A stretch of DNA of 33,634 nt, from positions 1-33,634 of the forward strand of contig JAPKBZ010000044.1 of the NCBI GenBank assembly GCA_028823175.1, in the 5' to 3' direction. Under the pieces are notes generated by a model. That model did not search any database and was not told the origin of the DNA. It saw only the letters and a list, made by a program, of their open reading frames with translations. Origin of the DNA: Myxococcota bacterium. GTDB lineage: Bacteria > Myxococcota_A > UBA9160 > UBA4427. Position 1 is the stretch's first letter, and each line of letters opens with the position of its first letter. Shown piece by piece: positions 17 to 31,822 of this stretch. The position numbers and the translations under genes were made by a program.

Positions 17-98
17 CCCGCCACGGGCTCCCCTAGGAATTTTACATAACGCCCATATTCGGAGTTTGTGCCGGAACCCAGCTTCTATGTCCTATCCC
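17..98 (+). repeat. Dispersed ~83-bp repeat, copy R1
   Basis: First copy of the family that punctuates the window. It starts with the CCCG-CCA-CGGG hairpin, continues through CTCCCCTAGG and the XerD-like arm ATTTTACATAA (10 of 11 versus the reference arm), and ends in CCTATCCC. It is diverged from the others (ATATTCGGAGTTTGTGCC in the middle; GGAACCCAGC instead of AGAAGACAGC). The 3' end of the minus-strand sulfatase-like gene is ~130 bp to the right; the 129 bp between holds nothing recognisable. Confidence 0.9.
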
Positions 99-227
99 GC
101 CAGCATCCCAAAAGGCCGGCTCCAGACAGCAATAGCCGTCCACGTCCTTGTTCGACAAGGTAGAGACGGTGGACGGCGAGGTCGGCTAGCAGCGGTCTCT
201 GAGGCCTCGCGTGCGGGGTGCCTGGGC

Positions 228-2639
228 CTATTCGATGTAGCCCAGGGCGCGAAGGTTCTGCTCCACCTCTTCGTCGATGGGTTCCGTGAGGGGCGAGGGG
301 TCGACGATTCCCTCGTCCCGGCGGATTTTGTTCTCGAGCAATTGCCTGAGGGTGTGGCCCACTACGGTCTGCCGGAACCAGATATCGTTTTGCTCTCCGG
401 CATCCTTTTCGAGGTCGAAGAGCTGATACGTGTGATGGGGGGTCGTCCGCTTGCGGGTGGTTCTCGCCAGCTTCCAGCGTCCCAATCGCACCGAGACGAG
501 TTTCTCCGAGCCAAAATAGACCCTGCCTTGTTTCGGGATACTGACGTTGGACCACGAGTAGATGGGGACTTCCGGGCCGGGGCTGCCGGCTGGGCCGAGA
601 ATGACGGGGAGAAGGCTCTGGCCCGACATGATCTCTGGTTTCGGGATGCCCAGGAGGTCGAGAAGCGTTGGAAGGATATCGACGCCCTGGACCAGGGCCA
701 CGCTCCGCCCGCCCTCGGGAATGACTCCGGGGAGGGAAAAGATCAAGGGGATTCTGAGCTCTTCCTGGTAGACGGATCTTCCGTGACCCCACAACCCATG
801 ATCGAATAATTGCTCGCCGTGATCCGAGAGGAGGACCACGACGGTGCTGTCGCGCCGCCCCGATTCTTCGAGTCGATCAAGCAGGGCCCCGAAATACTCG
901 TCGACGAAACTGACCTCGGCCTTGTAGAGCGAACGCAGCTGCTCCTTATCCTCGGGAGCGAGCCAGTCACCGTGGTCGTTGATCGCTCTGAGGACAAGGA
1001 GGTGCTCGCTGAAGCTCGGGCGCCAGCCATCGATATTCCCCGAGTACTCGATCGCGTAGGGGGCCAGATAGGAAGCCGGGGCCTCGTAGGGGGAATGGGG
1101 ATCGATCTCATGAAGCAGCGCGAGCACGGGCCTGTCTTCCTCGTTCTCGAAGGCGGGAGCGAAAAACTGCTGCCAAACCCTGTCGGCCTGGTCTTCGGCG
1201 GAAGGGATTTCTTCTAGGACCCTCGCCCTGGACTCGTAGTACTCGACTAATTTCGAGAAGCCGCGGCCGAAGCCGTAGGCCTGCGAAAAGAAGGCATTAT
1301 TGGAGACTGCGACGGTCAGGTAGCCGGCCTGTGCCAGGATTTCAGGCAGGTAGGGCAGGTATTCAGACAGGACCTTGGCTTTGCCCCCGAGTTGATGGGC
1401 CGAGGGATGCAGCCCAGTCCAGAGTGAAGCGATGGAAGGACGCGTCCATGAAGCGTTCGAGTGCGCCTGCTCGAAGGTGAAGCCCGTCGAGGCAAATTGC
1501 TTCAGGGCGGGAGTCCGGACAGTGGTGCCCCCGTAGGGTTCGAGGTGGTCCGACCGGAGCGTGTCGAAAAGGACGAGCAGCACGTTGTAGGGGTGCTGGG
1601 GAGAATGGACCGGCGGCACACCGGGCTCGGTCCCCTCGATATAGGGCGCATCGAGAATGATCGACACGCTGGTTTTGTCCGCCGAGGAGGATCGGAGGAC
1701 GCTCTGGAGTCCGAGCATCTGCCCCGCGTAGCGCGAGAGGTCGATGGCCATGGCCTTTTCCCCGGCGCCGATGGGAGAGAATTCGGCGAGAATGCTCTCC
1801 TCTCCCTGGGCGTCGCGCGCCACCCATTGCCAGAGGGGGGTCCCGGATTCAGCAGGCAGATCCCATTTCAGGCCCACGTGAAGCTTGGCGTCGTCCGGAA
1901 GCTTGTAGTGCCAAGCGATCATCGAGTCGGCGGGTTGCCTGATTTGATTGCCTTCCACTTCAACTTCGGCCAGGGCGGTGCCCGCGGAAGCGGTCGAGTT
2001 GGCCCCGGAGAAGCGAACGCCGTGCAGCTTGAAGGCGATGGGCCTGGAGTCCAGCGCGGTCTGGCTCGTCGAGGGGCTGATCCAGTAGTAGAGGGGACTG
2101 AAAGTCAGGCGGTTGAGTCCAGTGGCCTGGACCTCGGCAGGGAGATCGACAGTCAGGGTCTGGCGCTTCCAATCCAGGGCGAAGCGACCGAGGTCGTGGC
2201 TGTTCCAGAAAATTCGGACGCTCTGGTGGGGCAACTCCTCTTCGGCCATCGAGGGCTCGATGTCGATTTCGAGCACCCGGTTCTCGGGCTCGAGGACGGT
2301 GATCTCGATCACGGAGCGCTTTCCCCGGGACCAGATGAAGGCCTGCTCGGGAGTTTCGTTCTGGACCGCGTGCCACCCCTGGGTGAAACGCGCCTCCCGG
2401 TCTCGGTCGAGCACCCCTTCGGCGCTGCCCTGGCCAAACCAGGCCCCCGGCAGATCGGCAACGAGGTCCAGGCGAATGGCTCGGGGTGGCGCAGGGGTCG
2501 TCTCCCCGACCTCGCCGGAAGGGGCCGGCTCGGGCGCCTCGCGCTCGGCGCAGCCGACGAGCGCGAGAAGGGCGAGCAGGAGCAGGCAGGACCCGAGGAT
2601 AGGGGCGATGCCCTTGCGGGCTTTCTCGTGGCGTTCCAT
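228..2639 (-). CDS. Sulfatase-superfamily lipoprotein lacking the formylglycine cysteine
   Basis: An 803-residue member of the alkaline-phosphatase/sulfatase superfamily (PF00884). I chose the ATG at 2639 because it gives a lipoprotein signal (MERHEK, a leucine-rich segment, lipobox LVGC with Cys30); the frame is open 64 codons further upstream. Residues ~31-345 are a non-catalytic all-beta region. The catalytic domain spans about 351-680, with FDTLRSDH (358-365), SNASWTRPSIASLWTG (around 394-409), a DPHSPY motif and LLSDHGEQ (603-610). Where sulfatases carry the C-x-P-S-R formylglycine motif, this protein has T-R-P-S-I with Thr399, so formylglycine cannot form. By analogy with LtaS-type enzymes Thr399 may be the nucleophile, which would suggest phospho- rather than sulfo-transfer; this is inference. 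The protein ends LRALGYIE, like its relative at 6218. It is probably anchored in the inner or outer membrane facing the periplasm or surface. Confidence 0.9.
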   Translation of the reverse strand: MERHEKARKGIAPILGSCLLLLALLALVGCAEREAPEPAPSGEVGETTPAPPRAIRLDLVADLPGAWFGQGSAEGVLDRDREARFTQGWHAVQNETPEQAFIWSRGKRSVIEITVLEPENRVLEIDIEPSMAEEELPHQSVRIFWNSHDLGRFALDWKRQTLTVDLPAEVQATGLNRLTFSPLYYWISPSTSQTALDSRPIAFKLHGVRFSGANSTASAGTALAEVEVEGNQIRQPADSMIAWHYKLPDDAKLHVGLKWDLPAESGTPLWQWVARDAQGEESILAEFSPIGAGEKAMAIDLSRYAGQMLGLQSVLRSSSADKTSVSIILDAPYIEGTEPGVPPVHSPQHPYNVLLVLFDTLRSDHLEPYGGTTVRTPALKQFASTGFTFEQAHSNASWTRPSIASLWTGLHPSAHQLGGKAKVLSEYLPYLPEILAQAGYLTVAVSNNAFFSQAYGFGRGFSKLVEYYESRARVLEEIPSAEDQADRVWQQFFAPAFENEEDRPVLALLHEIDPHSPYEAPASYLAPYAIEYSGNIDGWRPSFSEHLLVLRAINDHGDWLAPEDKEQLRSLYKAEVSFVDEYFGALLDRLEESGRRDSTVVVLLSDHGEQLFDHGLWGHGRSVYQEELRIPLIFSLPGVIPEGGRSVALVQGVDILPTLLDLLGIPKPEIMSGQSLLPVILGPAGSPGPEVPIYSWSNVSIPKQGRVYFGSEKLVSVRLGRWKLARTTRKRTTPHHTYQLFDLEKDAGEQNDIWFRQTVVGHTLRQLLENKIRRDEGIVDPSPLTEPIDEEVEQNLRALGYIE

Positions 2640-3039
2640 CGTTTTCCGTGCTCCGGTAGTCGGCTCAGCGGGGCCTGGAGCCTGGCCCATGCTATCGGGT
2701 TCGGGCCCGATCGGCCCAGGGGCGCGATGGGCGCTCTTCGCAGGGATTACCAACGGGGCGACGAATTCGAGGCGCCCGGGGCCATCGGGGGTGAAGGCCG
2801 GTCCCCCCAACCCCGTGGATTCGGTCGTCATGCCGATTTGGCGAAAATTTGAGACCGCTGGACCGCCGCGTGAGTTCGATGGGGTTCTTCCCTTTCCTAT
2901 GCTCTACCGGGCGACGAGGACTCCATGCATCGACTCCCCTTGCTTGCCCGTCTTCCGCGCCAGTCGAGACCCGAAGGCCTGCGATCCACGCTCACCCGAG
3001 ATGTTCTGCACGCGTCAGCACATAGCGACTCAGGCGCGA
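2640..3039. other. Intergenic stretch, nothing recognised
   Basis: About 400 bp between the start of the sulfatase-like lipoprotein and the GNAT remnant. Frames are open on both strands, as expected at this GC content, but no translation resembles a known family and no clear ribosome-binding site with a start was seen. The minus-strand frame of the lipoprotein stays open to 2831; that extension is Pro/Gly-rich and lies upstream of the signal peptide, so I treat it as untranslated. Confidence 0.5.
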
Positions 3040-3394: not shown

Positions 3395-3399
3395 GCCCC

Positions 3400-3482
3400 C
3401 CCGCCACGGGATCCCCTAGGGATTTAACATAACGCCCAGGCTCGAACGTTGTGCCCGAACCCAGCTTCTATGTCCTATCCCC
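3400..3482 (+). repeat. Dispersed repeat, copy R2 (left unit of a composite)
   Basis: Full-length copy with CCCG-CCA-CGGG-ATCCCCTAGGG and an exact ATTTAACATAA (3422-3432), whose complement TTATGTTAAAT is the XerD-binding half of E. coli dif. It ends in CCTATCCCC. It is followed immediately by a second right half and an inverted left end (separate entry). The GNAT remnant abuts on the left. Confidence 0.93.
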
Positions 3483-3554
3483 GTGCTCGGACGTTGTGCG
3501 GGAAGGCCGCTTGAATTTCCTATCCCCTAAATCCCTAGGGGGTCCCGTGACGGG
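3483..3554 (+). repeat. Second right half and inverted left end of composite R2
   Basis: 3483-3527 repeats the right half of the element (GTGCTCGGACGTTGTGCG through CCTATCCCC) without its left half. 3528-3554 is the reverse complement of the 27-bp left end: compared with 3400-3426 it matches 25 of 27 positions. The whole block 3400-3554 is therefore ~155 bp flanked by inverted 27-bp ends, unlike the other nine copies. The inverted end carries the GTCACGGG version while the left end carries GCCACGGG, so it probably derives from a different copy. Confidence 0.85.
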
Positions 3555-3653
3555 CTCAAGGCGATTCCGAGTCGTGAGGAATAAGCGCCGGCTTTGTCGG
3601 TCGCTGCTGGGCAGGCGATGGTAGAATGAGGAGGGGGTTGGAGATTCAATTCT

Positions 3654-5516
3654 ATGTGCCTTCCAGTGCATGAGAACCGCCGGCTGGGCTTCCGTGCTCT
3701 GGTAGCCCTCCTGGCTGGCTTGATACTTTCGTTCTCGGCCTCGGCTCAGACTCCCCCGCCGCCTCTCTTCTTCGTCCATGGCGGAAATCCGGGCAATGCC
3801 ACGGGCTTCTTTGCGGGTGACGACGATCGGCCCGGGATTCAGGCCGCCATCGATGCCGCCATGATGTGGCTCGAGGATTCCGCCAACGTGGGGGCGGGGC
3901 CGGCATCGGTGGTTTTCGAGCCTGGAGGCACCTACCACCTGGATTCGGTCAAGCCCAATGACACTTCGTTTGCGCTGATCGTGCGCCAGCTGGACCGGAA
4001 CTCGGACTGGCTTCACTTCGTGGGAAACGGGGCGACGATCGTTCATCGGCAACTGCTACGGCAGACCCTGGGTATTCACGCTTCCCAGAACGTTCTCGTG
4101 GAGGGCCTGGACTTCGACCGTGATCCTCTTCCCTACATGGACGGCTTCGTCGAGGCGGTGAATGGAAGCGTCGTGACCGTGCAATTGGTCAGGGGCCTCA
4201 GCCCGTTGCTCTTCCCACCCGAGAACCCCTCTCCAGGCAGTATTCGGCATTGGGGCTGGCTGCTCGACCCCCAGATTCCGGGGCGTCCCAAGGAAGGTTC
4301 AGCGAGTTTCTACGAAGCCTCCGCGGTGAGCCTGACAGGCTCGGATCCCGATGTCTACGATTTCGTCATCACGGCGGCAGGGAGCACCATCGCCGCCGAC
4401 TTCGCCGTGGGCGATCGCTTTACCTACCACTACAGGGAGGGCGGGAATAGCCTGCATATCCGTAACTCCCTGAATATCGAGATTCGAGACGTCACCGCCT
4501 ACGCGGCATCGGCCATGTTCGTCAACTCCAGCACGACTACCGGGCTCTCGGTGATCGACAGCCGGGTGGCGATCCGGCCGGGCCATTGGCGTTCGACCAA
4601 CGGCGATGGGCTGCATATCAAGCGAAGTACCGACCTGTGGGTCGAGGGCTGCTCCTTTCAAGGTGTCAGCGACGACGGCATCAATGTCACCGAGGTCGAT
4701 ACTTTCGTGCTGCAGAACAACGTATTCGCGAACAAACGGCGGCACGCGATTTTGCTCGACGCCGACGACCAGGGCGGAAATCCGCCGAATTCGTCCAACG
4801 GCCAAATTTTCGGCAACTATGCGGCTTTCAACGGAGGTTCCTTCATTTCACATGCGGGAGGCGAGTACGGGATTTCCATCCATTCGAATAATGTCAGTTC
4901 TAACAACGTCACTCGAACGTTCGGAGAAAACCGTCTTGTCCGTCTGGGAACGCGACTCGGTGGGTTCGCGGCGGCGGGTGTCGACGGACTGGACGGTGCG
5001 TGGAGCGAAGGCGATGCGGTGCAGGTGGTCGCCAATCTCTCCATGACGGACACCGCCTGGCATTTGCAGGAGGTGTCCGGCGGCCGAGTAATCATCATCA
5101 ACCGGGCGGCTCGAGATGATGGCCTCTGGCTCTACCTCGTCCCCGCGCAAGCATCTCCAGCCCAGGGCGACCCGGCGGTCTTGCGGACCGGCCAGGGTCC
5201 CAACAACCCGGCGGCCGCCGAGTGGGTGGTGGAAGAAGTCGAGGGCAGCGAGTTCGCCCGAATTCGTCACGCCGATTCCGGCTTCTACCTAGCCCTGCAG
5301 CCCTCGGCGGGTGGACCCGCGGCGGGAGACCCCATTGGCGTGGAGGCGTCTTCGAGCAGCGATGTGAACCAGGTCTGGAGGATCGACCGACTGGAGGACG
5401 GGGATCAGGGAGTTCCGATCCCGCTGCTCGGGGGGCTGGGACGATTGCTCCTGATGGCAATTCTGGTTGCCGGGGCGGCTCTCCCGTCACGGGGCTCCCC
5501 TAGGGACTTAACATAA
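3654..5516 (+). CDS. Secreted right-handed beta-helix protein with ricin-like domain and CTERM-like tail
   Basis: A 620-residue exported protein. Residues 1-31 form a signal peptide (cleavage near ASA-Q). Residues ~35-440 form a parallel beta-helix of the pectate-lyase/GH110-like type: EGLDFDRDPLPYMDG (150-164), then STNGDGLHIKRS (314-325) and GVSDDGINV (337-345), whose paired Asp residues resemble GH110/GH28 active-site turns. A glycoside hydrolase or polysaccharide lyase is possible but unproven. Residues ~458-581 look like a ricin-type beta-trefoil (two repeats ending WVVEEV and VWRIDRL). The tail VPIPLLGGLGRLLLMAI resembles an IPTL/PEP-CTERM sorting helix. The last ten residues (PSRGSPRDLT) and the TAA stop are encoded by repeat R3, so the native C-terminus with its usual basic cluster appears to be replaced. 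The ATG at 3654 has a GGAG ten bases upstream. Confidence 0.88.
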   Translation: MCLPVHENRRLGFRALVALLAGLILSFSASAQTPPPPLFFVHGGNPGNATGFFAGDDDRPGIQAAIDAAMMWLEDSANVGAGPASVVFEPGGTYHLDSVKPNDTSFALIVRQLDRNSDWLHFVGNGATIVHRQLLRQTLGIHASQNVLVEGLDFDRDPLPYMDGFVEAVNGSVVTVQLVRGLSPLLFPPENPSPGSIRHWGWLLDPQIPGRPKEGSASFYEASAVSLTGSDPDVYDFVITAAGSTIAADFAVGDRFTYHYREGGNSLHIRNSLNIEIRDVTAYAASAMFVNSSTTTGLSVIDSRVAIRPGHWRSTNGDGLHIKRSTDLWVEGCSFQGVSDDGINVTEVDTFVLQNNVFANKRRHAILLDADDQGGNPPNSSNGQIFGNYAAFNGGSFISHAGGEYGISIHSNNVSSNNVTRTFGENRLVRLGTRLGGFAAAGVDGLDGAWSEGDAVQVVANLSMTDTAWHLQEVSGGRVIIINRAARDDGLWLYLVPAQASPAQGDPAVLRTGQGPNNPAAAEWVVEEVEGSEFARIRHADSGFYLALQPSAGGPAAGDPIGVEASSSSDVNQVWRIDRLEDGDQGVPIPLLGGLGRLLLMAILVAGAALPSRGSPRDLT

Positions 5517-5566
5517 TGCCCATACTCGGACGTTGTGCGGGAAGGCAGCTTGTATGTCCTATCCCC
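5483..5566 (+). repeat. Dispersed repeat, copy R3
   Basis: GTCACGGGGCTCCCC subtype with arm ACTTAACATAA (10 of 11 versus the exact arm in R2) and terminal CCTATCCCC. On the left it supplies the stop codon (TAA at 5514-5516) of the beta-helix gene. On the right it joins directly to a 5'-truncated amidohydrolase. Its internal GTG (5535) is in frame with that fragment. Confidence 0.93.
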
Positions 5567-8013: not shown

Positions 8014-8096
8014 CCCGCCACGGGATCCCCTAGGGATTTAACATAATGCTCATACTCGGACGTTGTGCGGGAAGACAGCTTGAATGTCCTATCCCC
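8014..8096 (+). repeat. Dispersed repeat, copy R4
   Basis: GCCACGGGATCCCC subtype with the exact 11-bp arm ATTTAACATAA at 8036-8046. It shows the predicted fold best: GGGAT (8033-8037) with ATCCC (8091-8095), GGAC (8058-8061) with GTCC (8086-8089), GTTGT (8062-8066) with ACAGC (8075-8079). Its right edge provides the stop codon (CTA on +, TAG on -, 8089-8091) for the minus-strand gene at 8089-8997. Confidence 0.95.
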
Positions 8097-9027: not shown

Positions 9028-9111
9028 CCCGTCAGGGGGTTCCCCTAGGGACTTAACATAACGCCCATACTCGGACGTTGTGCCAGAAGACAGCTTGGAT
9101 GTCCTAGCCCC
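9028..9111 (+). repeat. Dispersed repeat, copy R5
   Basis: Variant left hairpin (CCCGTCAGGGGGTTCCCC), arm ACTTAACATAA (10 of 11), canonical CGGACGTTGTGCCAGAAGAC core, and right end CCTAGCCCC. It lies immediately upstream of the TTG start of the minus-strand gene and ~80 bp upstream of the plus-strand membrane/spermidine-synthase-like gene, so it occupies a divergent intergenic region. Confidence 0.92.
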
Positions 9112-9193: not shown

Positions 9194-11866
9194 ATGACTG
9201 GCTGGATCGTCTACGCGGTTTTCTTCCTATCGGGTCTCTCGGGACTGATCTATCAAGTCATCTGGGTTCGCCAATTCGGTTTGGTCTTCGGCAACACCCT
9301 GCAATCCGCTTCCCTCGTGAGCGCGATCTTCCTCTTCGGACTGGGTGTCGGCGGTTGGGGAGCGGGCATCCTTGCTGATCGTCTGAACCCCAAGGATCAG
9401 CAAGCAGGCCTACGCCTCTACAGCCTCTGCGAGGCTGCGATCGGAGCCCTGGCACTGCTAGTCGGGCTCGTATTGATTCGGCTCCAGGGCTGGAGTTCTG
9501 TCATCTCATCTTACACAGCGACGGATCAGGGCTGGCTCGAGCTTTCGGCCACTTCGCTCTTGCTCCGCTACCTGACCGCGATCGCCCTGATCGCCCCGAT
9601 CACGCTTCTCATGGGAGCAACCCTCACTCTCCTGATCCGGTTCCTGGTTCAGATCGAGATGGGCGAGGCGGGCCGCCGCATTGGCTTCCTCTATGCAATC
9701 AATACGGCGGGCGCCGCAATGGGCGCCCTGCTGGTGGATTTCATCGCGATCCCAGCCCTCGGATTACTGCGAACACAGTTCGTGGCCGTCGCCTTGAACC
9801 TGCTCGCAGCCGGCGGCGCCTTCGCACTCTTCAGGCGACTTCGTTCGGCATCCGTTGCAGCGGTAGATCCGCCGCCCACATCCACATCATCGAATGCACA
9901 GGCAAGATCCTTGCCCGCATATCAAGTCGCGATTGCACTCGCTCTATCCGGATTCGCCGCCATGGGAATGGAGATCCTCTGGTTTCGATATCTGACCAGC
10001 TTCATGGGGCAGTACCGGGTGATCTTCTCGGTCCTGCTCACGGTCATCCTGGTGGGCATCGGGCTGGGGTCGGCCTGCGGAGGTGCCCTCGCAAGTCGCT
10101 GGAGGCATCCGGTTCGCATCTTCGTGCTCGCGCAGTTCGCCTTCGTTCTTTCGGCCGTGGCTTCGATCTTGCTCTACAAGGCCGGTGGCGGCATCAGCGA
10201 ACTTCACATACTCAGGACCGAGGGCCTCTCGGGCGTCGGGCGCTTTCTCGGCGCCATGGCTCAGATCGTCGATCCCATCTTTCGGCTGGTCGGTATCCCC
10301 GCCTTCTTCATGGGATTCTCCTATCCCGTCGCCAATGCGATCGTACAGACCCAGAGCGAGGACGTGGGGCGGCGGGCCGGCGCACTCTATCTCGGGAACA
10401 CGATCGGCGCGGTCGCCGGATCACTCACGACCGGTTTCCTCCTGCTGCCCTTGCTCGGAATCAAGACCGGCGGCTTCCTGCTTCTCCTCTGCGCCTGTCT
10501 GGCGCCCATTCCGATCCTCTATTCCTCCCTCGGCCCAACCTCCGAATCGCAGATCGAAGGCTCGGGGCAACGCGGATTCAGTCTGGCGATGGGGGCACTC
10601 GGGCTAGTCGTCATCTTTGGTCTCAGCGCCTGGAATGGTCTCCCTCAGCACTACTTCGTGCTGGATAGCTTTCGTTACCACCCCAGGCTGAGCGCGTATC
10701 TGCACGATCCCTACCTCCTCTCGGCAAGCGAGGGCGAACTCGAATCGATTGTCGTTCTCGAAATCCCAGAAGAACACGGCCGCACGCTCTATACCAACGG
10801 CCACAGCATGTCTGCCACGTCGCCCCAGGCACAGCGCTATATGCGCGCCTTCACCCACATCCCCCTACTTCAGATGGAAGAGCCTCGCGATGTGCTCGTG
10901 ATCTGCTTCGGCGTCGGAAACACGCTGCATTCGGCATCGCTACACGGAAGCATCGAGAACCTCGAAATCGTCGACCTCTCACGCCATGTCCTCAAACACG
11001 CTTCCTTCTTCGCCGCCACCAATGGCGACGTTCTCGAAGACGATCGTGTCAGTGTCTTCATCAACGATGGTCGCCAGCATCTCCGCATGCAAGACGTCGA
11101 GCGCTACGACCTCATCACGATGGAACCGCCACCAGTCGACTTCGCCGGTGTCGCTTCGCTCTATTCTCGCGAGTTTTACGAACTCGTCCGCAGCCGGCTT
11201 AAGCCCGGCGGTCGGATCACCCAGTGGCTGCCGATTCGCGAAGTTCCGGGCGAAATTTCGAAGTCGATGGTGCGCGCCATGCTCGACGTCTTCCCCGATA
11301 CAGTGATGCTCGCTGCCTCTTACGCCGATTTGATCCTGATGGCTACGAGGGATGGCGAAATCCAATTCGATCCCGATCGCTACGATCGCCGCCTCGCCGA
11401 GAGTCCCGCCGTAGAGGCTGATCTTGCTCGCTACGAGATGAATTCAGCCATGGAAATCCTCGGAATGTTTTCTGCCAATTCCGAGACCCTGGCGGCTGCG
11501 ACTCGCGATTCCGCACCCGTGACAGATGACAACCCCATCCTCGAATACGCGAGACACTGGTACCCAAGAGAGAGCATTCCCACGGATCTCTTTGCGGAAG
11601 ACGAGGTGGCCAGCTGGTGCCCCGCATGCATGAAAGAAGGCCGGCTCAAGCCGCGATTCGCCCTGCTGCCTACCTACTTGGAGATCATGGCAACAATCCA
11701 CGACGCACCCCAGTACTGGGATCTCACGGCTCGTGATGGTGCGACCGCCACCCTCGATTTCGGGAATCACAACATCTCCCGAATCCGACGAGTCGTTGCC
11801 ACGAGTTCGCATCTTCAAAGACTCATTCCCGAGCTGGCACCAAGAGCCCGTCACGGGGCCCCCTAG
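9194..11866 (+). CDS. Fused multi-TM / spermidine-synthase-like protein
   Basis: 890 residues from the ATG at 9194. The first ~500 residues are polytopic, with many hydrophobic segments (GLSGLIYQVIWVRQFGLVFG and the LFGLGVGGWGAGILADR turn are typical of fused MFS/spermidine synthases). The C-terminal part is a Rossmann aminopropyltransferase-like domain: glycine loop DVLVICFGVGNTLHSA near 563-578, acidic EIVDLS, NDGRQHLRM, then DLITMEPPPVDFAGVASLYSREFY (from ~637). True spermidine synthases have an Asp in the D-S/C-x-D-P segment; here it reads M-E-P-P, so polyamine synthesis is doubtful. The last six residues (ARHGAP) and the TAG stop at 11864 are contributed by repeat R6, meaning the gene end overlaps the repeat. 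The start has no strong Shine-Dalgarno. Function unknown; inner-membrane location expected. Confidence 0.85.
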   Translation: MTGWIVYAVFFLSGLSGLIYQVIWVRQFGLVFGNTLQSASLVSAIFLFGLGVGGWGAGILADRLNPKDQQAGLRLYSLCEAAIGALALLVGLVLIRLQGWSSVISSYTATDQGWLELSATSLLLRYLTAIALIAPITLLMGATLTLLIRFLVQIEMGEAGRRIGFLYAINTAGAAMGALLVDFIAIPALGLLRTQFVAVALNLLAAGGAFALFRRLRSASVAAVDPPPTSTSSNAQARSLPAYQVAIALALSGFAAMGMEILWFRYLTSFMGQYRVIFSVLLTVILVGIGLGSACGGALASRWRHPVRIFVLAQFAFVLSAVASILLYKAGGGISELHILRTEGLSGVGRFLGAMAQIVDPIFRLVGIPAFFMGFSYPVANAIVQTQSEDVGRRAGALYLGNTIGAVAGSLTTGFLLLPLLGIKTGGFLLLLCACLAPIPILYSSLGPTSESQIEGSGQRGFSLAMGALGLVVIFGLSAWNGLPQHYFVLDSFRYHPRLSAYLHDPYLLSASEGELESIVVLEIPEEHGRTLYTNGHSMSATSPQAQRYMRAFTHIPLLQMEEPRDVLVICFGVGNTLHSASLHGSIENLEIVDLSRHVLKHASFFAATNGDVLEDDRVSVFINDGRQHLRMQDVERYDLITMEPPPVDFAGVASLYSREFYELVRSRLKPGGRITQWLPIREVPGEISKSMVRAMLDVFPDTVMLAASYADLILMATRDGEIQFDPDRYDRRLAESPAVEADLARYEMNSAMEILGMFSANSETLAAATRDSAPVTDDNPILEYARHWYPRESIPTDLFAEDEVASWCPACMKEGRLKPRFALLPTYLEIMATIHDAPQYWDLTARDGATATLDFGNHNISRIRRVVATSSHLQRLIPELAPRARHGAP

Positions 11867-11929
11867 GGATTTAACATAACGCCCATACTCGGACGTTGTG
11901 CCAGAAGACAGCTTGTATGCCCTATCCCC
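11847..11929 (+). repeat. Dispersed repeat, copy R6
   Basis: GTCACGGGGCCCCC subtype with the exact arm ATTTAACATAA at 11869-11879. It supplies the TAG stop of the upstream plus-strand gene and lies 26 bp from the 3' end of the minus-strand Pr6Pr gene, so it sits between convergent gene ends. Confidence 0.95.
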
Positions 11930-18352: not shown

Positions 18353-18436
18353 CCCGCGACGGGGCTCCCCTAGGGATTTGATATAATGCCCATACTCGGA
18401 CGTTGTGCCAAAAGCCAGCTTGAATGTCCTATCCCC
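18353..18436 (+). repeat. Dispersed repeat, copy R7
   Basis: Left hairpin is degraded to CCCGCGACGGGG; then CTCCCCTAGGG, arm ATTTGATATAA (9 of 11), core CGGACGTTGTGCCAAAAGCC and end CCTATCCCC. It precedes the aldo/keto reductase gene by ~150 bp. No obvious damaged gene is seen at either edge. Confidence 0.92.
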
Positions 18437-19555: not shown

Positions 19556-19735
19556 CTAGTTCAGAGGCCCAGAATCGGGTTGGCGACGGCGTGGCCGGCC
19601 ATGTCCGGAAGAGGCTAACGAGAGACACGGGGGTTCTCGAGAGAGAGCTGGGATCCGTAGGCGGGAAGAATACGGAAACTCTAGCCCAGGGGATTTGCGG
19701 GGAGAGGTGCGAGGGGTGTCGTTTCCGTTCCGACG

Positions 19736-20182: not shown

Positions 20183-20265
20183 CCCGCCACGCGATCCCCT
20201 AGGGATTCAACATAGCGCCCATACTCGGACGTTGTGCCAGAACCCAGCTTGAATGTCCTACACCC
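20183..20265 (+). repeat. Dispersed repeat, copy R8
   Basis: Diverged copy: left hairpin CCCGCCACGCG, then ATCCCCTAGGG, arm ATTCAACATAG (9 of 11), canonical core, and right end CCTACACCC. It sits between the divergent ParB-like and SDR genes, ~75 bp from the SDR start. Confidence 0.92.
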
Positions 20266-20341
20266 TAGTGGCATGGTTGCAGACGAACCGAGACCAACAC
20301 ACGCTAAATTTTCGGCCTCACCTATAAGGAAAACACACGGC

Positions 20342-23068: not shown

Positions 23069-23152
23069 CCCGTCACGGGGCTCCCCTGCGGATTTACCCT
23101 AACGCCCATACTCGGACGTTGTGCCAGAAGACAGCTTGTATGTCCTATCCCC
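23069..23152 (+). repeat. Dispersed repeat, copy R9
   Basis: GTCACGGGGCTCCCC subtype but with CTGCGG replacing CTAGGG and arm ATTTACCCTAA (9 of 11). Right half is canonical and ends CCTATCCCC. Its right edge truncates an LLM-oxidoreductase gene and supplies that fragment's stop codon. Confidence 0.93.
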
Positions 23153-23437: not shown

Positions 23438-24124
23438 TTAGGCGCCGCCTCCGGTGTCAAGTGAATCGACGAAGGCGTCGATCATTCGAAGCTCCTTTTC
23501 AGCCGACGCCTTGCTTCCGTTTCCGACCAGGCGTGTTCCCGCGCCCACCGTCAATGCGCCGATCGCCGCGAGGAGTTCGCTCGGGTCGAGATCGTCGCGC
23601 ACCAGGCCGGCTTCTTGAAGACGACTCACCCAACCAATATTCAGGTCCCTCCAGTTCTCGATGCCCTGCTGGGGATCGCCCACAAGCTCACCATCCGCGT
23701 CCGATCGCGCGCGAAGCTCGAGCCAGTTGCGCCAGTCGCGGCGGCGTTCGGGGTCGAGGGGCAGGGCCTCTCGAACCGCCGCGCGGAGCTGTGACAGCGT
23801 CGGTGGGCCGACGCGTGTCGCTTCGACCCGAGCGACCAGTCGCGCGCGCGCCTGCTCGCAGCGCTTTTCGAGGTCCTGGATCGAAATACGTGTTTGAGTT
23901 TGCTCTTCGAGTCCAAGCCGGTCGGGTTCGGCGCGCGCCAATTTGATCAGCTCGGCCTGAGAGTGGACGCCGAGCTTCCCGAATGACGACTTCAGGTGGT
24001 TGCTCACCGTTCGCGGACTGATCCCGAAGTGCCCCGCAATCGTCGCGATGCGACCTCCCTTGAGGAGCTCAAGGATGACCTCCTTCTCTCTCTTCGTGAG
24101 CGCTGAGTTTGGTTTTACGGCCAT
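23438..24124 (-). CDS. Regulator combining a LuxR-type HTH with a TetR (BetI-like) ligand domain
   Basis: 228 residues from the ATG at 24124. Residues 9-60 are a GerE/LuxR helix-turn-helix: LTKREKEVILELL, GISPRTVSNHLKSSFGKLGVHSQAELI. A linker with helical character (~60-108) follows. Residues ~112-223 resemble the C-terminal ligand domain of BetI-type TetR regulators: LRAAVREALPLDPERRRDWRNWLELRARSDAD, then GLVRDDLDPSELLAAIGAL, then AEKELRMIDAFVDSLD. LuxR HTHs normally sit at the C-terminus and TetR domains follow a TetR HTH, so the order and pairing are unusual. It is divergent from the PQQ-like lipoprotein gene (81 bp apart) and probably regulates it. The minus frame continues upstream beyond 24124, but that part overlaps the other gene and lacks family character. 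Confidence 0.82.
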   Translation of the reverse strand: MAVKPNSALTKREKEVILELLKGGRIATIAGHFGISPRTVSNHLKSSFGKLGVHSQAELIKLARAEPDRLGLEEQTQTRISIQDLEKRCEQARARLVARVEATRVGPPTLSQLRAAVREALPLDPERRRDWRNWLELRARSDADGELVGDPQQGIENWRDLNIGWVSRLQEAGLVRDDLDPSELLAAIGALTVGAGTRLVGNGSKASAEKELRMIDAFVDSLDTGGGA

Positions 24125-24205
24125 GGCTGGACCATTATGGCCCATGCATCTGTTCAGAAAAACTGCCAGAGTCTCGGCCGCCAACGCCAGCAAAGGACCC
24201 TCGAT

Positions 24206-26467
24206 ATGGACCATGCCAATCGACTGTGTGCTCTCGCGCTCTTCGCGTTCTTCGTCCTGTCCTGCTCCGAAGCCGAGAAGCTCTCGCCCTCCGCAGGCCC
24301 CGAGGGGGCACCGACTCGGATCTCGGATCGCGGCGTTCAAGAGCACGGAAAGGTGTGGCCTCGCAGTATCGAGTCTGCCTACATGGGCACGTGGGGTGAC
24401 AATCGGAACTCTGGCTCGACCCTCGTCACGAGCTTCGAGCAGCGCCGCCTTGCCGGCCAGAGCGAATACCTCAGCTGGACCCAGCCGAATTCGCCCCCCG
24501 TATCGGCGCTGATGACCAACGGCAGCACCGAAGCGCCCAACGGTCTGATCATCGCCGTTTCGCCTCGCGGCGGCGGCACCTCCACTGTCGTGGCTCTCGA
24601 CCTGAACGGCAAGGTCGTTTGGCGCACCGAAGAGTGGACCGGCGACGACAAGGACGGCGATGGAATTCCCGACCAGGCGGGACAGCGCAACGCGGTGGCC
24701 TCCAGCGCTGGGATCCAGGCCCCGATGGTCGACGACGAGGGTGCGATCTATGTCGGCGACAATTACGGGGTCTGGAAGCTGGACCAGGATACCGGCGAGC
24801 GCATCTGGTTCTCGCGGTTCTCCGACTACAGCGGCAACAAGCTCGCTTCGAACGATTTGCGCCTCTTCAACGAGGGTGAAGACGGTTTGGTGGGGAACGT
24901 GTTCGCTTCGGGCTGGCACATCTGGCTGGATCGTCGCGATGGTTCGCCGGTTGTCGTCAAAGAGCCCGACCCCTTCTCGGCAGAGGATTGTCCGTTACGC
25001 GCACGGCTCTACGTCAGCGCGAGCGGCGGCGAGATGGATAAGTCGGGCGAACTCGACGAACTGACTTGCCTTGCGTACAGCGCCAACAACACGGTGCCCC
25101 AGCCAAACAACCTGGCGGTCCGCCCCGCGATACCCGGCATCTCCGAGCACGCCCGATACTTGTTCACCTACGCGGGTCCGGTGGGAAAACCCGATCAAGC
25201 GCGGCTCATCGCATACGACTTCACCTACAGCGACGAGAAGGGATGGGGCATCCGCAAAGCCTGGGAGCGTGTCATCGATGGGCTCACCGGTGCCAGCCCG
25301 ACGCTCAACCCCGATTATACGATCGTGAATGCCTCGGACGCCGAAGGGAGTGTCAACTTTACCTATGTAGAGACCGGAGAGGCGATTCCGAACCCCGACG
25401 TCGACTTCAATAGCTTCGGATCCCCCGCCAACACCATCGACGGGCTCTACTGCGATTGGTGGACCCTGACCTGCATCTCTCCCGACGGGAAGACGGTGAT
25501 TCAGGCGGACCACTCGGCCACGGAGGAGATCGCTGCACAGGTTCTGCCCGAACTCGATGACTACGCGATTCCATTTCTCTGGGGAACGACGCCGGATGCG
25601 GACTACATCGGAGGGGGCATTGTGGATCCCATGCGATGGACGGCCACCGCGAGCGTGGGCTATCCCTATTTTCTGGGAAAGGTGCTCGGCAGTACCACGC
25701 GTCTGGGCTCCCTGACACCCACCGCGATGGTGCCCGTTACCTTCGACGCAAAGACCGGAAAGCTCATGCCGGGACAGACTTTCGGGCCCGAGCTCACACG
25801 GCCGGGTATCTCACAGGCCAATGGCCTCGTCACTACTCGCGGACGCTACGTCGTGCAGAAGGCCGAGTTGCTGACACTCTTCTACTACTACCTGTTCCAG
25901 GGCAACTACAATTTTTTTAACACAAACGACGTCAGCTACGATGACGTGAGTGACGAGAAAATGGTCGAGCTCCAGGAGACGAGCGCGAAGCTGTACTTCT
26001 TCGGTCTCTTCGGTTCGATCGGTGAAGAGGGAATTGTTCCCGATCCGTGGAAGGTGCCACAGCCCGAGGCAGGCATTACGATCTACGAGCCCACCTCCTT
26101 CCTTCAGGGCGTGCGCAACCAAATCGAGATGGACATTGCCCTCGTCGACTTTGCGCTCGCGAATCTCTGCGTCACTGCGGGCTGCCAGATCGAAGAAGCT
26201 GCCGCGCGACTCGGCTATGCGGCCTGGAATCTTGACCGCTCTGTGCCTCATCAACTTACCGAGGCCCAGACCCGAAACGAGATCCAGGGCGCCGCCCGCC
26301 AGAACGTCCAGATGGCAACGTCCGGGGCAGCGGCTCTTTGCCGCCGCGCTCGCGCGCAGCTCCTCGCCAACCAGCCGCAGCTTCCCGATGCGCCGGGACT
26401 CATACTTGCGAAGCAGGACGCTGCAAACTGCATGTCGGATCTAGAATCCGCCCTTGCACGACTGTGA
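24206..26467 (+). CDS. Secreted PQQ-like beta-propeller lipoprotein
   Basis: 753 residues from the ATG at 24206, with AAGGA eight bases upstream. Lipoprotein signal MDHANRLCAL...FVLSC with lipidated Cys20. Propeller-type repeats are visible in VVALDLNGKVVWRTEEW, DDEGAIYVGDNYGVWKLDQDTGERIW and LIAYDFTYSDEKGWGIRKAW, the blade pattern of PQQ-dehydrogenase-like domains, but no quinone-binding disulfide pair or catalytic Asp can be assigned. DDKDGDGIPD (~147-156) is a thrombospondin-3-like calcium loop. The C-terminal ~100 residues are helical with paired cysteines (LCVTAGCQIEEAA; LCRRARAQ; NCMSDLE). Surface or periplasmic location expected. Immediately followed by the PDZ protein gene, so probably an operon. 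Function unknown. Confidence 0.82.
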   Translation: MDHANRLCALALFAFFVLSCSEAEKLSPSAGPEGAPTRISDRGVQEHGKVWPRSIESAYMGTWGDNRNSGSTLVTSFEQRRLAGQSEYLSWTQPNSPPVSALMTNGSTEAPNGLIIAVSPRGGGTSTVVALDLNGKVVWRTEEWTGDDKDGDGIPDQAGQRNAVASSAGIQAPMVDDEGAIYVGDNYGVWKLDQDTGERIWFSRFSDYSGNKLASNDLRLFNEGEDGLVGNVFASGWHIWLDRRDGSPVVVKEPDPFSAEDCPLRARLYVSASGGEMDKSGELDELTCLAYSANNTVPQPNNLAVRPAIPGISEHARYLFTYAGPVGKPDQARLIAYDFTYSDEKGWGIRKAWERVIDGLTGASPTLNPDYTIVNASDAEGSVNFTYVETGEAIPNPDVDFNSFGSPANTIDGLYCDWWTLTCISPDGKTVIQADHSATEEIAAQVLPELDDYAIPFLWGTTPDADYIGGGIVDPMRWTATASVGYPYFLGKVLGSTTRLGSLTPTAMVPVTFDAKTGKLMPGQTFGPELTRPGISQANGLVTTRGRYVVQKAELLTLFYYYLFQGNYNFFNTNDVSYDDVSDEKMVELQETSAKLYFFGLFGSIGEEGIVPDPWKVPQPEAGITIYEPTSFLQGVRNQIEMDIALVDFALANLCVTAGCQIEEAAARLGYAAWNLDRSVPHQLTEAQTRNEIQGAARQNVQMATSGAAALCRRARAQLLANQPQLPDAPGLILAKQDAANCMSDLESALARL

Positions 26468-27852: not shown

Positions 27853-27964
27853 AGGCGGTGGGGTGTCCGCCAAGTGCGGGTGGACCCAAACGCCTAGATG
27901 GTCGGCAAGGAGCGTGTCGAGGCGGCTCACGATCACGCTCCGGAGACGATCGAAATTCCGGTAA

Positions 27965-28750: not shown

Positions 28751-30703
28751 ATGCGCAACTCGGATCGTGATCTAGGGATGGACCGCCCCGTTACGCGTCG
28801 AGATTTCATCGAGGGCGCCGGGGCGATTGCGGTGGGCTCTCTCATCGCCGGGAAACCCCAGGCAGGAGAAGCTCAAGCATCGGGCAAAGCCGCCGGGGCG
28901 GGTACCCCAGCCCACTACCCACCCGCGCTTTTGGGGCAGCGGGGTAGTCAACCCGGATCCTTTGACGTCGCCCACGAGTTGGTGCTTGCCGGTCGGAAAA
29001 ACTGGGGCACGCCGATCGAATCCGATGAGAATATGTATGACCTTGTGGTTGTCGGCGCGGGCATCAGCGGGCTCGCCGCGGCCTACTTTTTCCGCGAGCG
29101 GAATCCCGAGTCGCGGATCTTGATTCTCGACAACCACGACGATTTCGGCGGACATTCGAGGCGGAACGAATTTTCGATCGATGGGCGCACGATCCTGAGC
29201 TACGGCGGTGGCCAGACTCTGGAGAACCCTACTGGGTACAGTGAGATCTCGAAACGCCTTCTGCGCGATGTGGGAATCAGGATGGAGCGATTTGAAACCG
29301 CCTATGACCAGGAGTTCTATCGCCGGCACGGGCTGCGAGGGGGGATCTATTTTGATCGGCAAACGTATGGCGTAGACCGCGTCATTCCCTACGAAATTCT
29401 GGAGTTTACGGGTTACCTCCCGCTTGAGCGCTCAAAGTTGTCCGCGGCAGAGGCGATTGGAAGGATGCCGCTCTCGGAGGCTGCCCGAAAGGATCTTCTG
29501 AAGTTGATGACCACGAGTAAGGATGTGATCCCCAACGTTCCGAAGGGTGAGCGAGCAGAGTATCTCGGGCGCATCAGTTACCGGGAATTTCTCGAGCGTC
29601 ACATGGGAGTGAAGGACCCCGACGCGATCGCATTGCTGCAGGGCATGACAACCGATATCGGTCTCGATTTTCGGCGTGCCACTGCCGCGAGCGTGATCGG
29701 CTACGTGGGCATGCCCAACGCGAGAGCAGCCGGTTTTTTCGGCGAAGAAGACTACGCGCCGTATATCCACCACTTCCCTGATGGAAACGCTTCCGTCGCC
29801 CGTCTTCTCGTGAGGAGCCTCATACCGGCCGTGGCGCCGGGTAAGACGATGGAGGACATCGTGATGGCCCCGTTCGATTATGGAAGACTCGACGACCCAG
29901 GGACGGGCGTACGGGTCCGATTGAACGCGACGGTTGTGAAGGTCGTCCATGAGGAGGCGCCGGCCAAGTCGAAGAGTGTCGCGATTACCTATGTGACCGG
30001 CGCTTCTTCTTCCGTCTCTTCGCGCTCTCGCGTCGTACGCGGTCGAGCGTGCATCCTTGCAGGATACAATTCGATGATTCCGCATCTCTGTCCCGAGATG
30101 CCCACGGCTCAGCGCGATGCGCTTTCGCTCGCGATTAAATCGCCCGTGGTGTACACGAATGTCTTGCTTCGAAACTGGAAGGCCTGGAAGAAGATGGGGA
30201 TCGGGGCGGTGGCGACCCCAGGTGGGTACCACGCGAATGCGATGCTCGACTTTCCGGTCAGTCTCGGCGACTACCATTTTTCGGCCGGCCCCGACGAGCC
30301 GATCGTCGTGCACATGGAACGGTTCCCAAAGGGTACGGATGGCAGCGCGTCCGCGCGGGACCAATACCGGGCCGGGCGCCGGGATCTTCTCCGGACTCCG
30401 TTTGAGTCGATTGAGCGCTCAGTACGCTCGCAACTCGGGGGTATGTTGTCCGAGGGGGGATTCGATCCAGCCACCGATATTGCAGCGATCACAGTCAATC
30501 GTTGGGCACACGGTTATGCGTATTCCTATGATCCGATCTCGGATTTGGTGTATGACGAGGGTGAGTATCCGAACGAGGTTGGGCGAAAGCGATTCGGGCG
30601 CATCGCTATTGCCAACTCCGATGCTGGGGCTTCGGCGGCCGTTCCGAGTGCGATCGAAGAGGCTCATCGAGCGGTTTCCAACTTGGAAGACCTACAGGGG
30701 TGA
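28751..30703 (+). CDS. Tat-exported FAD-dependent amine oxidoreductase, spermidine-dehydrogenase-like
   Basis: 650 residues from the ATG at 28751 (a second ATG at 28778 would also keep the signal). The twin-arginine motif VTRRDFIEGAGAIAVGSL (Arg16-Arg17) directs folded export. The FAD dinucleotide fold is YDLVVVGAGISGLAAAYFF (GAGISG at 102-107), followed by ILILDNHDDFGGHSRRNEF, a segment closely resembling Pseudomonas-type spermidine dehydrogenase/FAD oxidoreductases. A second FAD contact is expected at the C-terminus (GRIAIANSDAGASAAVPSAIEEAHRAV). Polyamine or another primary/secondary amine is the likely substrate; this rests on family resemblance. It sits directly behind the terminator-bearing leader and is probably controlled by it. 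Confidence 0.88.
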   Translation: MRNSDRDLGMDRPVTRRDFIEGAGAIAVGSLIAGKPQAGEAQASGKAAGAGTPAHYPPALLGQRGSQPGSFDVAHELVLAGRKNWGTPIESDENMYDLVVVGAGISGLAAAYFFRERNPESRILILDNHDDFGGHSRRNEFSIDGRTILSYGGGQTLENPTGYSEISKRLLRDVGIRMERFETAYDQEFYRRHGLRGGIYFDRQTYGVDRVIPYEILEFTGYLPLERSKLSAAEAIGRMPLSEAARKDLLKLMTTSKDVIPNVPKGERAEYLGRISYREFLERHMGVKDPDAIALLQGMTTDIGLDFRRATAASVIGYVGMPNARAAGFFGEEDYAPYIHHFPDGNASVARLLVRSLIPAVAPGKTMEDIVMAPFDYGRLDDPGTGVRVRLNATVVKVVHEEAPAKSKSVAITYVTGASSSVSSRSRVVRGRACILAGYNSMIPHLCPEMPTAQRDALSLAIKSPVVYTNVLLRNWKAWKKMGIGAVATPGGYHANAMLDFPVSLGDYHFSAGPDEPIVVHMERFPKGTDGSASARDQYRAGRRDLLRTPFESIERSVRSQLGGMLSEGGFDPATDIAAITVNRWAHGYAYSYDPISDLVYDEGEYPNEVGRKRFGRIAIANSDAGASAAVPSAIEEAHRAVSNLEDLQG

Positions 30704-30836
30704 CCGCCCCGTGTCGGGCACAACCAATACTAGGTGCTCTGACAGCTAAGCCCCTGTCTGGGCTACGTGGCCTCTTTACGGGAAGTCAGCTGGTCGTCAT
30801 TTCCTTTTTAGTTCTCCGCATTACTGCCGGGTTAGG

Positions 30837-30860
30837 TATAATGCCCGCCCCTATTGGAGG
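30837..30860 (+). promoter_or_regulatory. Promoter -10 and ribosome-binding site of the OmpA-like gene
   Basis: Consensus TATAAT at 30837-30842 with the GGAGG ribosome-binding site at 30856-30860, six bases before the ATG. No good -35 is visible, so the promoter may need an activator or use another sigma factor. The leader is only about 18 nt long if transcription starts near 30849. Confidence 0.6.
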
Positions 30861-30866
30861 TTCATC

Positions 30867-31529
30867 ATGAACACATTCATCGCTTCTCGTCCGTCCTTTC
30901 TGCTCGTCGCTGCGACGGCGACGGTCCTCATGCTCTCTGGCTGCGTCACTCGCAGCTCCTACGAAGAGGTCGCAGAGGAGCGCGACCAGCTTCTTCGACA
31001 GAATGCCGCGCTCGAGGGCGACACCGTCGAATTGAGTACCGAGCTCATGCTCCGCGATCTGGAACTTTCCCAGCTCGAGCGTGAACAACAGGAATTGACC
31101 GACGAGGTCACACGCTGGGCCGTACGCGGTGCGATCAAGATGCAGATGTTGGCGGACGGCCTCCATCTGACGCTCCCCTACGACGTACTCTTCGCGAGTG
31201 GCACGACAACGCTTAGCGACGAGGGCCGTGAGCTCATCGTGGAACTCGTCCAGGAGATTAATCAACAGCCCTACCAGATCGCCGTACTCGGATTTAGCGA
31301 CAACGTGCCCGTTGGGCCGAAACTCGCCGAACACTATCCCTCGAACTGGGAACTCGCCGGCGCACGCGCGGCGAGTGTCGTGCGCGTGATGGAAGAGGCG
31401 GGCATCCCGGCAGATCAGCTGATCGCGGTCTCGCGAGGCGAAACCGAACCGATCGCGTCGAACGACACGGCCGCAGGACGCGCCCAGAATCGCCGCATCG
31501 ACGTGCGACTCCGTCCCATCGTGAACTAA
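30867..31529 (+). CDS. OmpA-family peptidoglycan-binding lipoprotein
   Basis: 220 residues. Lipoprotein signal with lipobox LSGC (Cys26). Residues ~32-88 are a charged coiled coil (EEVAEERDQLLRQNAAL, then LMLRDLELSQLEREQQELTDEV). Residues ~100-218 are an OmpA C-terminal domain: LPYDVLFASGTTTLSDEG, IAVLGFSDNVPVG, NWELAGARAASVVRVMEEAGIPADQL, AAGRAQNRRIDVRLRP; the Asp and Arg residues that bind diaminopimelate are present. It resembles Pal/MotB-type or YiaD-type proteins and would tether the outer membrane to peptidoglycan. It has its own promoter and stands alone. Confidence 0.94.
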   Translation: MNTFIASRPSFLLVAATATVLMLSGCVTRSSYEEVAEERDQLLRQNAALEGDTVELSTELMLRDLELSQLEREQQELTDEVTRWAVRGAIKMQMLADGLHLTLPYDVLFASGTTTLSDEGRELIVELVQEINQQPYQIAVLGFSDNVPVGPKLAEHYPSNWELAGARAASVVRVMEEAGIPADQLIAVSRGETEPIASNDTAAGRAQNRRIDVRLRPIVN

Positions 31530-31739
31530 CGCTTCGGGGCGGCGCGGAGAAGCGCTTCCGCCAACAGTGATGCCGGTAGCGATAGCGCCGAAGCCCGAGC
31601 GCGAGGAACGTGACGCCGGCTGTGGGGCCGCTCGTGGGCAAAAGGCTCGCCATGATGGTGACGTCCCTCCAAGGGTACCTTGGCGTACGGATACTGCGGA
31701 CCAGGAGCGCCTTCTTCCCAAGCCCCTTGACTGTTCCTT

Positions 31740-31822
31740 CCCGCCACGGGATCCCCTAGGGATTTAACAGACTGCCCACACCCGGACGTTGTGCCAGAAG
31801 GCAGCATGAATGTCCTATCCCC
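31740..31822 (+). repeat. Dispersed repeat, copy R10
   Basis: GCCACGGGATCCCC subtype with a degraded arm ATTTAACAGAC (9 of 11) and a variant middle (ACACCCGGACGTTGTGCC). Right end CCTATCCCC. It is separated from R9 by 8.7 kb, the longest gap in the series, and lies between the OmpA lipoprotein and the small minus-strand hypothetical gene. Confidence 0.93.

What the first reader, a model, noticed from the sequence alone, without database searches (positions are those of the whole stretch)
17..31822. Ten-copy, ~83-bp dispersed repeat family that punctuates the whole region
R1-R10 share a left hairpin, CCCCTAGGG, an A/T-rich arm, the near-invariant core CGGACGTTGTGCC and the terminal CCTATCCCC. 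They fall at intergenic positions or gene ends every 1.0-8.7 kb, dividing the window into segments of one to several unrelated genes. I do not recognise it as ERIC, REP, a Correia element or a classical attC. It could be a new mobile or recombination element family.
Basis: seen in the sequence. Interest (0 to 1): 0.87.

Follow-up and report, generated by a model that had tools for sequence, protein, structure and literature searches.

The report
Xer-site repeats that shuffle gene blocks
An 84-base repeat with over a hundred copies in one Myxococcota genome carries a near-copy of that cell's own dif site (the spot where joined chromosome copies are separated), sits at breaks in gene order, and likely lets the housekeeping XerC/XerD enzymes shuffle blocks of genes.

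Summary
In detail: ten full copies lie in the window, all on the + strand, and 137 core-pattern matches lie in the source genome. The repeat matches no Rfam family and shows no conserved fold. It is not the attC of the integron captured between two copies in a relative, which has its own classical attC-like sites (by eye). Its core is a XerC/XerD-type site. On the bottom strand it reads ACGTCCGAGTA-TGGGCG-TTATGTTAAAT; the dif site of the same genome reads ACGTCCGATAA-GATAGA-TTATGTTAAAT. That is 20 of 22 arm positions with the same 6-bp spacing but another centre. Copies mark breaks in gene order: 1 of 131 informative copies has collinear flanks elsewhere, against 38 of 141 intergenic controls. 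Truncated copies break preferentially around the core centre (23 of 69, 12.7 expected). Best reading: dif-derived sites with a private centre that host XerC/XerD recombine with each other, giving chromosomal islands like the dif-module islands of Acinetobacter, but with an 84-bp site and many more copies. Recombination is inferred, not seen. How copies become joined to native DNA, and why variants are unlinked even within the arms, is unexplained.

The parts
17..99 (+). copy R1; Xer core 39-66 (XerD arm, 6-bp centre, XerC arm in + strand order)
   Evidence: 17 of 22 arm positions match the genome's dif
3400..3482 (+). copy R2; Xer core 3422-3449
   Evidence: 18 of 22
3481..3530 (+). right-half copy joined directly behind R2
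3528..3554 (-). inverted left end closing the R2 composite
5483..5566 (+). copy R3; Xer core 5506-5533; left edge cuts the last bases of a beta-helix gene, right edge cuts an amidohydrolase-like gene
   Evidence: 19 of 22
8014..8096 (+). copy R4; Xer core 8036-8063
   Evidence: 20 of 22
9028..9111 (+). copy R5; Xer core 9051-9078
   Evidence: 19 of 22
11847..11929 (+). copy R6; Xer core 11869-11896, identical to the family core
   Evidence: 20 of 22
18353..18436 (+). copy R7; Xer core 18376-18403
   Evidence: 18 of 22
20183..20267 (+). copy R8; Xer core 20205-20232
   Evidence: 18 of 22
23069..23152 (+). copy R9; Xer core 23092-23119
   Evidence: 18 of 22
31740..31823 (+). copy R10; Xer core 31762-31789
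   Evidence: 16 of 22
3555..5482 (.). example of a block between copies: beta-helix gene; homology to G004:C342 (85%) spans window 3548-5482 and stops at the left edge of R3

Best explanation
The repeat carries a dif-like XerC/XerD site, and the host's own XerC and XerD likely recombine its copies, so that the gene blocks between copies would behave as exchangeable modules. Shown: the core has the 11-6-11 layout of dif, matches the genome's own dif at 20 of 22 arm positions, has a different and strongly shared 6-bp centre, and stands at breaks in gene order. Inferred: a common centre lets copies recombine with each other but hardly with dif, so the copies form a private exchange network driven by housekeeping enzymes and need no integrase of their own. 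Also inferred: exchange adds, removes and inverts blocks of accessory genes, and the left and right arms outside the 28-bp core act as accessory sequences. Not explained: how a copy first becomes joined to native DNA at its outer edges.
For: (1) Dif of the genus: a dif-type pattern with up to 3 mismatches finds TCCGATAAGATAGATTATGTTAAAT (four genomes) or ACCGATAAGATAGATTATGTTAAAT (one) once in each of the 5 genus genomes; G003 has one further, unrelated match, and the reversed control has one match each in G002 and G005 among 20 genomes. The 28-mer of the source genome is ACGTCCGATAA GATAGA TTATGTTAAAT; the element reads ACGTCCGAGTA TGGGCG TTATGTTAAAT. Published dif of Anaeromyxobacter (ACGTCCGATAATATGGATTATGGTAACT) and Myxococcus have nearly the same XerC arm (PMC2731167, passages). 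(2) Controls: the element scores 17 of 19 arm positions, against at most 15 (3 times) in 20000 dinucleotide shuffles and at most 16 (4 times) in 30000 random 84-mers of island DNA. All ten window copies score 16-20 of 22; the best other place in the window scores 14. (3) One pattern of the shared arms with up to 1 mismatch hits 16 of 40 genomes: once in each of seven genomes with at most 3 copies of the element, dif-type in the six that are printed, and 14-87 times in the five genus members (copy numbers). (4) Centre CGCCCA is intact in 308 of 390 copies and is the best conserved region, mean 0.955. (5) Synteny: 1 of 131 copies with a homologous flank elsewhere is collinear, against 38 of 141 intergenic controls, P = 2e-11; in G002 alone 0 of 32 against 6 of 27. 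(6) Truncated copies next to non-element DNA break at positions 35-46 in 23 of 69 cases, 12.7 expected, P = 0.002, with the peak bin 41-46 beside the boundary where XerC would cut (cutting position from general knowledge of Xer sites). (7) Genes for a XerD-like and a XerC-like recombinase are present. (8) At the XerD-arm position where the dif of G037 differs from that of the genus, all 9 G037 copies fetched (of 28 found) carry the base of their own dif.
Against: No recombination was observed. Copies do not always follow the host dif: at that same arm position 15 of 16 full G028 copies keep the genus base although the G028 dif has the other one. Linkage is lost within about 8 bp everywhere in the 84 bp (mean r2 0.23 at 1-3 bp, 0.026 at 4-8 bp, 0.006-0.014 beyond; permuted 0.003), not only across the centre, so central crossover alone does not explain the variation. 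Copies sharing a flank junction do not clearly share the adjacent part of the element (left edge, 6 pairs: 70 of 86 positions, background 0.818; right edge, 5 pairs: 64 of 70, background 0.862). Eight identical copies with unrelated flanks and 75 of 838 tested outer edges that abut DNA which is uninterrupted elsewhere call for copying or insertion of the whole 84 bp. The recombinase candidates score under their equivalog cut-offs (XerD 323.4 of 329.6 bits, XerC 287.5 of 335.15). The two XerC-arm bases next to the centre vary (TA or GG), and the consensus departs from dif at two nearby positions.
Confidence: 0.6

Rival explanations
1. A non-autonomous transposable repeat that happens to include a captured dif core. 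It copies itself as an 84-bp unit by an unknown transposase, and the Xer core plays no part in the spread or the shuffling.
For: Eight identical copies in G002 with no similarity among their flanks; sharp outer edges with near-random flanks; patchy presence across species; one half copy inserted in a gene with a 7-bp loss; G028 copies that do not follow the host dif.
Against: No target-site duplication in 225 copies, no terminal inverted repeats by inspection, and no transposase recognised by eye among the 14 largest island protein clusters printed. It does not explain the conserved centre or why flanks are almost never collinear.
Confidence: 0.21
2. The copies are only short stretches of homology: ordinary RecA-type recombination between them shuffles the islands, whatever their sequence.
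For: Loss of linkage along the whole element, and one shared block whose homology ends inside the element at position about 14 (L261 and L229).
Against: 84 bp at about 84% mutual identity is a poor substrate (recalled). Breaks cluster at the Xer centre, and the site mirrors the genus dif.
Confidence: 0.14
3. The copies are unusual attC sites of an integron, with large multigene cassettes.
For: Integron integrase genes lie next to copies in G001 and G014 at the same junction.
Against: That integrase has its own classical attC-like cassettes on its other side (by eye). Gene direction is random with respect to the copies. No structure is conserved. G000, G002, G003 and G004 have no integrase over the cut-off, though all are incomplete.
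Confidence: 0.02
4. The mosaic junctions are metagenome assembly chimeras made at a repeat.
For: The genus genomes are fragmented assemblies, and several contigs begin or end in a copy.
Against: The repeat itself and its dif core do not depend on joins. In G002, whose contig names (k141) suggest assembly words longer than the repeat (naming convention recalled), the break signal holds: 0 of 32 against 6 of 27. Chimeras would hardly unlink variants 8 bp apart.
Confidence: 0.03

Closest known systems
dif / pdif modules of Acinetobacter, including chromosomal dif module islands (PMC12907356: abstract, outline and the section on chromosomal dif sites; PMC13141974: abstract, outline and introduction; PMC6449649: passages)
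   Same: 11-6-11 XerC/XerD sites resembling the host dif, with additional chromosomal sites differing from the main dif mostly in the centre; many sites in a row separating unrelated gene blocks; movement attributed to the host XerC/XerD; a chromosomal island described (22 sites in strain M10, ten of them in 36 kb).
   Different: 28-bp sites there, an 84-bp conserved unit here; 1-5, 14, 15 and 22 chromosomal sites reported there, 137 matches here; alternating C and D modules there, 175 of 251 neighbouring copies in the same direction here; plasmid-linked there, no match in the plasmid collection here; another phylum.
Chromosomal dif site
   Same: Arms nearly identical (20 of 22) and the same spacing.
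   Different: Multicopy, other centre, long conserved arms; the true dif is separate and single copy in the genus.
Integron attC arrays
   Same: Repeated tyrosine-recombinase sites dividing a variable gene region.
   Different: No attC boxes by eye, no conserved fold, random gene direction, no IntI over the cut-off in four of five genus genomes.
Neisserial intergenic mosaic elements / dRS3 (recalled; only a search listing seen)
   Same: Short dispersed intergenic repeats linked to rearrangement.
   Different: Sequence relation not tested; no Xer core is known to me for them.

Membership tests
dif module system | site of XerC arm, 6-bp spacer, XerD arm resembling the host dif | tested here: met
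   20 of 22 arm positions, spacing 6
dif module system | spacer shared between module sites and different from the main dif | tested here: met
   top-strand CGCCCA in 308 of 390 copies; dif spacer GATAGA, element TGGGCG on the bottom strand
dif module system | sites alternate in orientation (C and D modules) | tested here: not met
   175 of 251 adjacent full copies point the same way
dif module system | discrete modules found intact in different contexts | tested here: inconclusive
   shared blocks end at a copy on one side in many cases; one block of about 1 kb has copies on both sides in two genomes but in opposite direction relative to them; only 1 collinear flank pair
dif module system | carried by Rep_3/OrfX plasmids | tested here: not met
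   one copy used as query: no match in 72,556 plasmid records or 50,697 phage records
dif module system | XerC-dependent recombination | not testable with these tools
   only gene presence shown
Integron attC | conserved fold, IntI present, genes co-directed with the site | tested here: not met
   attC boxes judged by eye only
MITE (DDE transposon relic) | target-site duplication | tested here: not met
   no duplication in 225 copies
MITE (DDE transposon relic) | terminal inverted repeats | tested here: not met
   ends CCCGTCACGGG and TATCCCC are not inverted copies (by eye)
Rfam RNA element | match to a curated family, conserved structure | tested here: not met

The most novel reading that the evidence does not exclude
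A lineage of Myxococcota has turned its chromosome-resolution machinery into a genome-wide gene-exchange system: more than a hundred dif-derived 84-bp sites with a private centre let XerC/XerD run integron-like islands that cover tens to hundreds of kilobases, without any integrase of their own.
Probability: 0.48. Interest if true: 0.87.

Novelty: new variant of a known kind. Interest (0 to 1): 0.73.

Why it matters
Dif-module shuffling is described so far as an Acinetobacter system: PMC13141974 calls it unique to that genus (importance statement and introduction read), a passage of PMC6449649 also names Psychrobacter and Moraxella, and a chromosomal island was recently reported in Acinetobacter (PMC12907356). 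Dif-derived sites at over a hundred per chromosome in a distant phylum would show that the near-universal XerC/XerD system can be co-opted repeatedly for gene exchange. The open question of how modules are born becomes testable, because 75 of 838 tested copy edges abut DNA that is uninterrupted elsewhere. My searches found no earlier description: dispersed repeats with Myxococcota, the core letters, dif-like repeat families, dif modules with Myxococcota gave no paper, and the listings for dif sites with XerC and Myxococcus, and for dif-like sites, showed none on this (listings read, open-access text only).

Tried and rejected
Integron attC: pursued first because an integron integrase lies beside copies in G001 and G014. 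Dropped after its own attC-like cassettes were read on the far side. RNA element: no Rfam match and no conserved pairs. Transposition with empty sites: no duplication; joined flanks gave mostly self or tandem artefacts and one half-copy case. Phage or plasmid vector: no match. Targeting of gene 3' ends: no bias. A first idea that left-left and right-right palindromic hybrids prove crossover in the spacer was weakened, because several switch in the arms. Linkage of half elements to their flanks was expected from central crossover and not found.

Rows dropped: copies within 150 bp of another copy, matches over 99.3% identical and matches under 80 bp, also matches within the same genome, 48 of 117 partial copies (contig ends, Ns, or within 40 bp of another copy); in the linkage counts, partial copies and, 17 duplicate sequences, 12 of 23 junction pairs with flank identity under 85%. 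The loci are a biased sample: most contigs were fetched because they carried copies.
Full report
The observation. The window holds ten full copies of one repeat, all on the + strand, plus a composite at 3400-3554. In the source genome (4.64 Mb, 235 contigs, 91% complete) a 30-nt pattern with up to 3 mismatches has 57 forward and 80 reverse matches, none for the reversed control; the four other members of the genus have 33, 73, 27 and 159. Named records identify relatives as Myxococcota metagenome genomes (contig lengths and positions tie G001 to JAAZXM, G002 to JAQWRT, G003 to DUCT and G004 to DUCH). That they are marine is my recollection of names such as TMED88, not a result. A sequence-only model finds copies in 39 of 79 genomes of the order. 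The distribution is patchy: of nine species of genus g11, two score 53 and 50 copies under a scoring limit of 57, two score 1 and 3, and five score none.

Anatomy. From 144 non-redundant loci (1.38 Mb) I took 539 matches, 364 of them full length; after adding further stretches, 156 loci (1.50 Mb) gave 570 and 390. Both edges are sharp and the flanks are near random, with G just before the left edge in 108 of 225. There is no target duplication (225 copies). Neighbouring full copies point the same way in 165 of 237 and then 175 of 251 cases. Of 277 full copies that could be placed, 11 lie inside a predicted gene, and gene direction is random relative to the copy (gene prediction by a simple script). 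RNAalifold finds no conserved pairs on 44 diverse copies. Hybrids made of two left halves or two right halves in opposite direction occur.

What the core is. The bottom strand reads ACGTCCGAGTA TGGGCG TTATGTTAAAT. A dif-type pattern found one conserved site in each of the five genus genomes, and in the source genome it reads ACGTCCGATAA GATAGA TTATGTTAAAT. The XerD arms are identical, the XerC arms differ at 2 of 11 positions, and the spacing is 6 bp in both. Dinucleotide-shuffled elements (best 15 of 19) and random island 84-mers (best 16) do not reach the element's 17 of 19. All ten window copies match dif at 16-20 of 22 arm positions, against a best of 14 elsewhere in the window. A pattern of the shared arms hits 16 of 40 genomes. 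Seven genomes with few or no copies give one hit, dif-type in the six printed, and the five genus members give 14-87, in the printed rows mostly with centre TGGGCG. Published dif of Myxococcales have nearly the same XerC arm (PMC2731167, passages). In G037, from another family, dif has C where the genus has T in the XerD arm, and all 9 copies fetched of 28 found carry the matching base. In G028, whose dif also differs there, 15 of 16 full copies keep the genus base, so copies do not always follow the host. The centre is the best conserved region of the element (0.955 mean; XerD arm 0.919, XerC arm 0.893, right arm 0.889, left arm 0.84).

What the copies do to gene order. For 279 isolated full copies, 129 have at least one flank with a homologue in another locus but only 1 has both flanks collinear there. 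For 386 intergenic midpoints the figures are 145 and 34, and for 400 random positions 113 and 63. A stricter repeat between genomes gives 1 of 131 against 38 of 141, P = 2e-11; for G002 alone 0 of 32 against 6 of 27, and for G001, with few data, 0 of 11 against 2 of 7, P = 0.14. In the window, copy 5483-5566 joins a beta-helix gene that has lost its last bases to a 340-bp 3' piece of an amidohydrolase-like gene; both genes run on uninterrupted in relatives (the second gene name is my reading of its translation and of its cluster). Truncated copies that adjoin ordinary DNA break at positions 35-46 in 23 of 69 cases, expected 12.7, P = 0.002, with a peak at 41-46, next to the boundary where XerC would cut.

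Mechanism. XerC-like and XerD-like genes are present (C220 and C52; XerC model 287.5 bits with cut-off 335.15, XerD model 323.4 bits with cut-off 329.6; the XerD-like one passes the general tyrosine recombinase model PRK00283). With the integron-integrase model the source genome gave 5 matches, and the four that were printed belong to these two genes. I therefore infer that host XerC/XerD recombine the copies. The private centre would favour copy-by-copy exchange over exchange with dif, as reported for spacer identity in Acinetobacter dif modules (PMC13141974, abstract and introduction).

What does not fit. Variants are in near linkage equilibrium beyond about 8 bp throughout the element (226 of 231 site pairs show all four combinations). 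This means heavy reassortment inside the arms as well as across the centre. Copies that share a flank junction are not clearly more alike next to it than random copies (11 pairs). Eight identical copies in G002 have no similarity among their flanks, and 75 of 838 outer edges join DNA that is continuous elsewhere. These facts ask for a second process, conversion or whole-unit insertion, which I cannot name.

Integron question. In G001 an integron integrase (421.9 bits) lies between two copies. Three classical attC-like sites with cassettes follow it on its far side (read by eye). The copies are therefore not its attC sites; the integron is cargo. The same integrase segment, 98% identical, abuts a copy at the same base in G014.

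Comparison. The closest system is the dif module system of Acinetobacter. It shares the site layout, the differing centre and islands of many sites (PMC12907356, abstract and section on chromosomal sites; PMC6449649, passages). It differs in site length, copy number, orientation rule, replicon and host. I file the finding as a new variant that works like dif modules, not as a proven member.

Noticed in passing
L161 3377-7090 (G001:C105): Integron with integrase and cassettes read in the same direction as the integrase (the inverse arrangement), with three attC-like sites by eye and one GNAT acetyltransferase gene.
   Followed up: partly
window 19597-19664: A stretch of about 67 bp matches several places in G005 (C3, C23, C41) at 84-90% identity: probably another dispersed repeat family.
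   Followed up: no
G000:C118:3138-3165: The dif site of the source genome, ACGTCCGATAAGATAGATTATGTTAAAT.
   Followed up: yes
L229 7058-12313, L261 5879-11125, L221 5316-10545, G037:C199 54816-59903: A three-gene block shared by genomes of two families has a copy close behind the same gene end in all four, in reversed direction in G002; in G037 copies lie on both sides.
   Followed up: partly
window 23438-24919 (-): One open frame joins a LuxR-type and a TetR-type (BetI C-terminal) regulatory domain.
   Followed up: no
L102 1-3168 (G008:C32): Long repeats spaced about 535 bp in the stretch fetched around an integron integrase.
   Followed up: no
L136 (Candidatus Hydrogenedentota record JAPYPO010000472.1): One copy in a record labelled as another phylum: transfer or a misbinned contig.
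   Followed up: no
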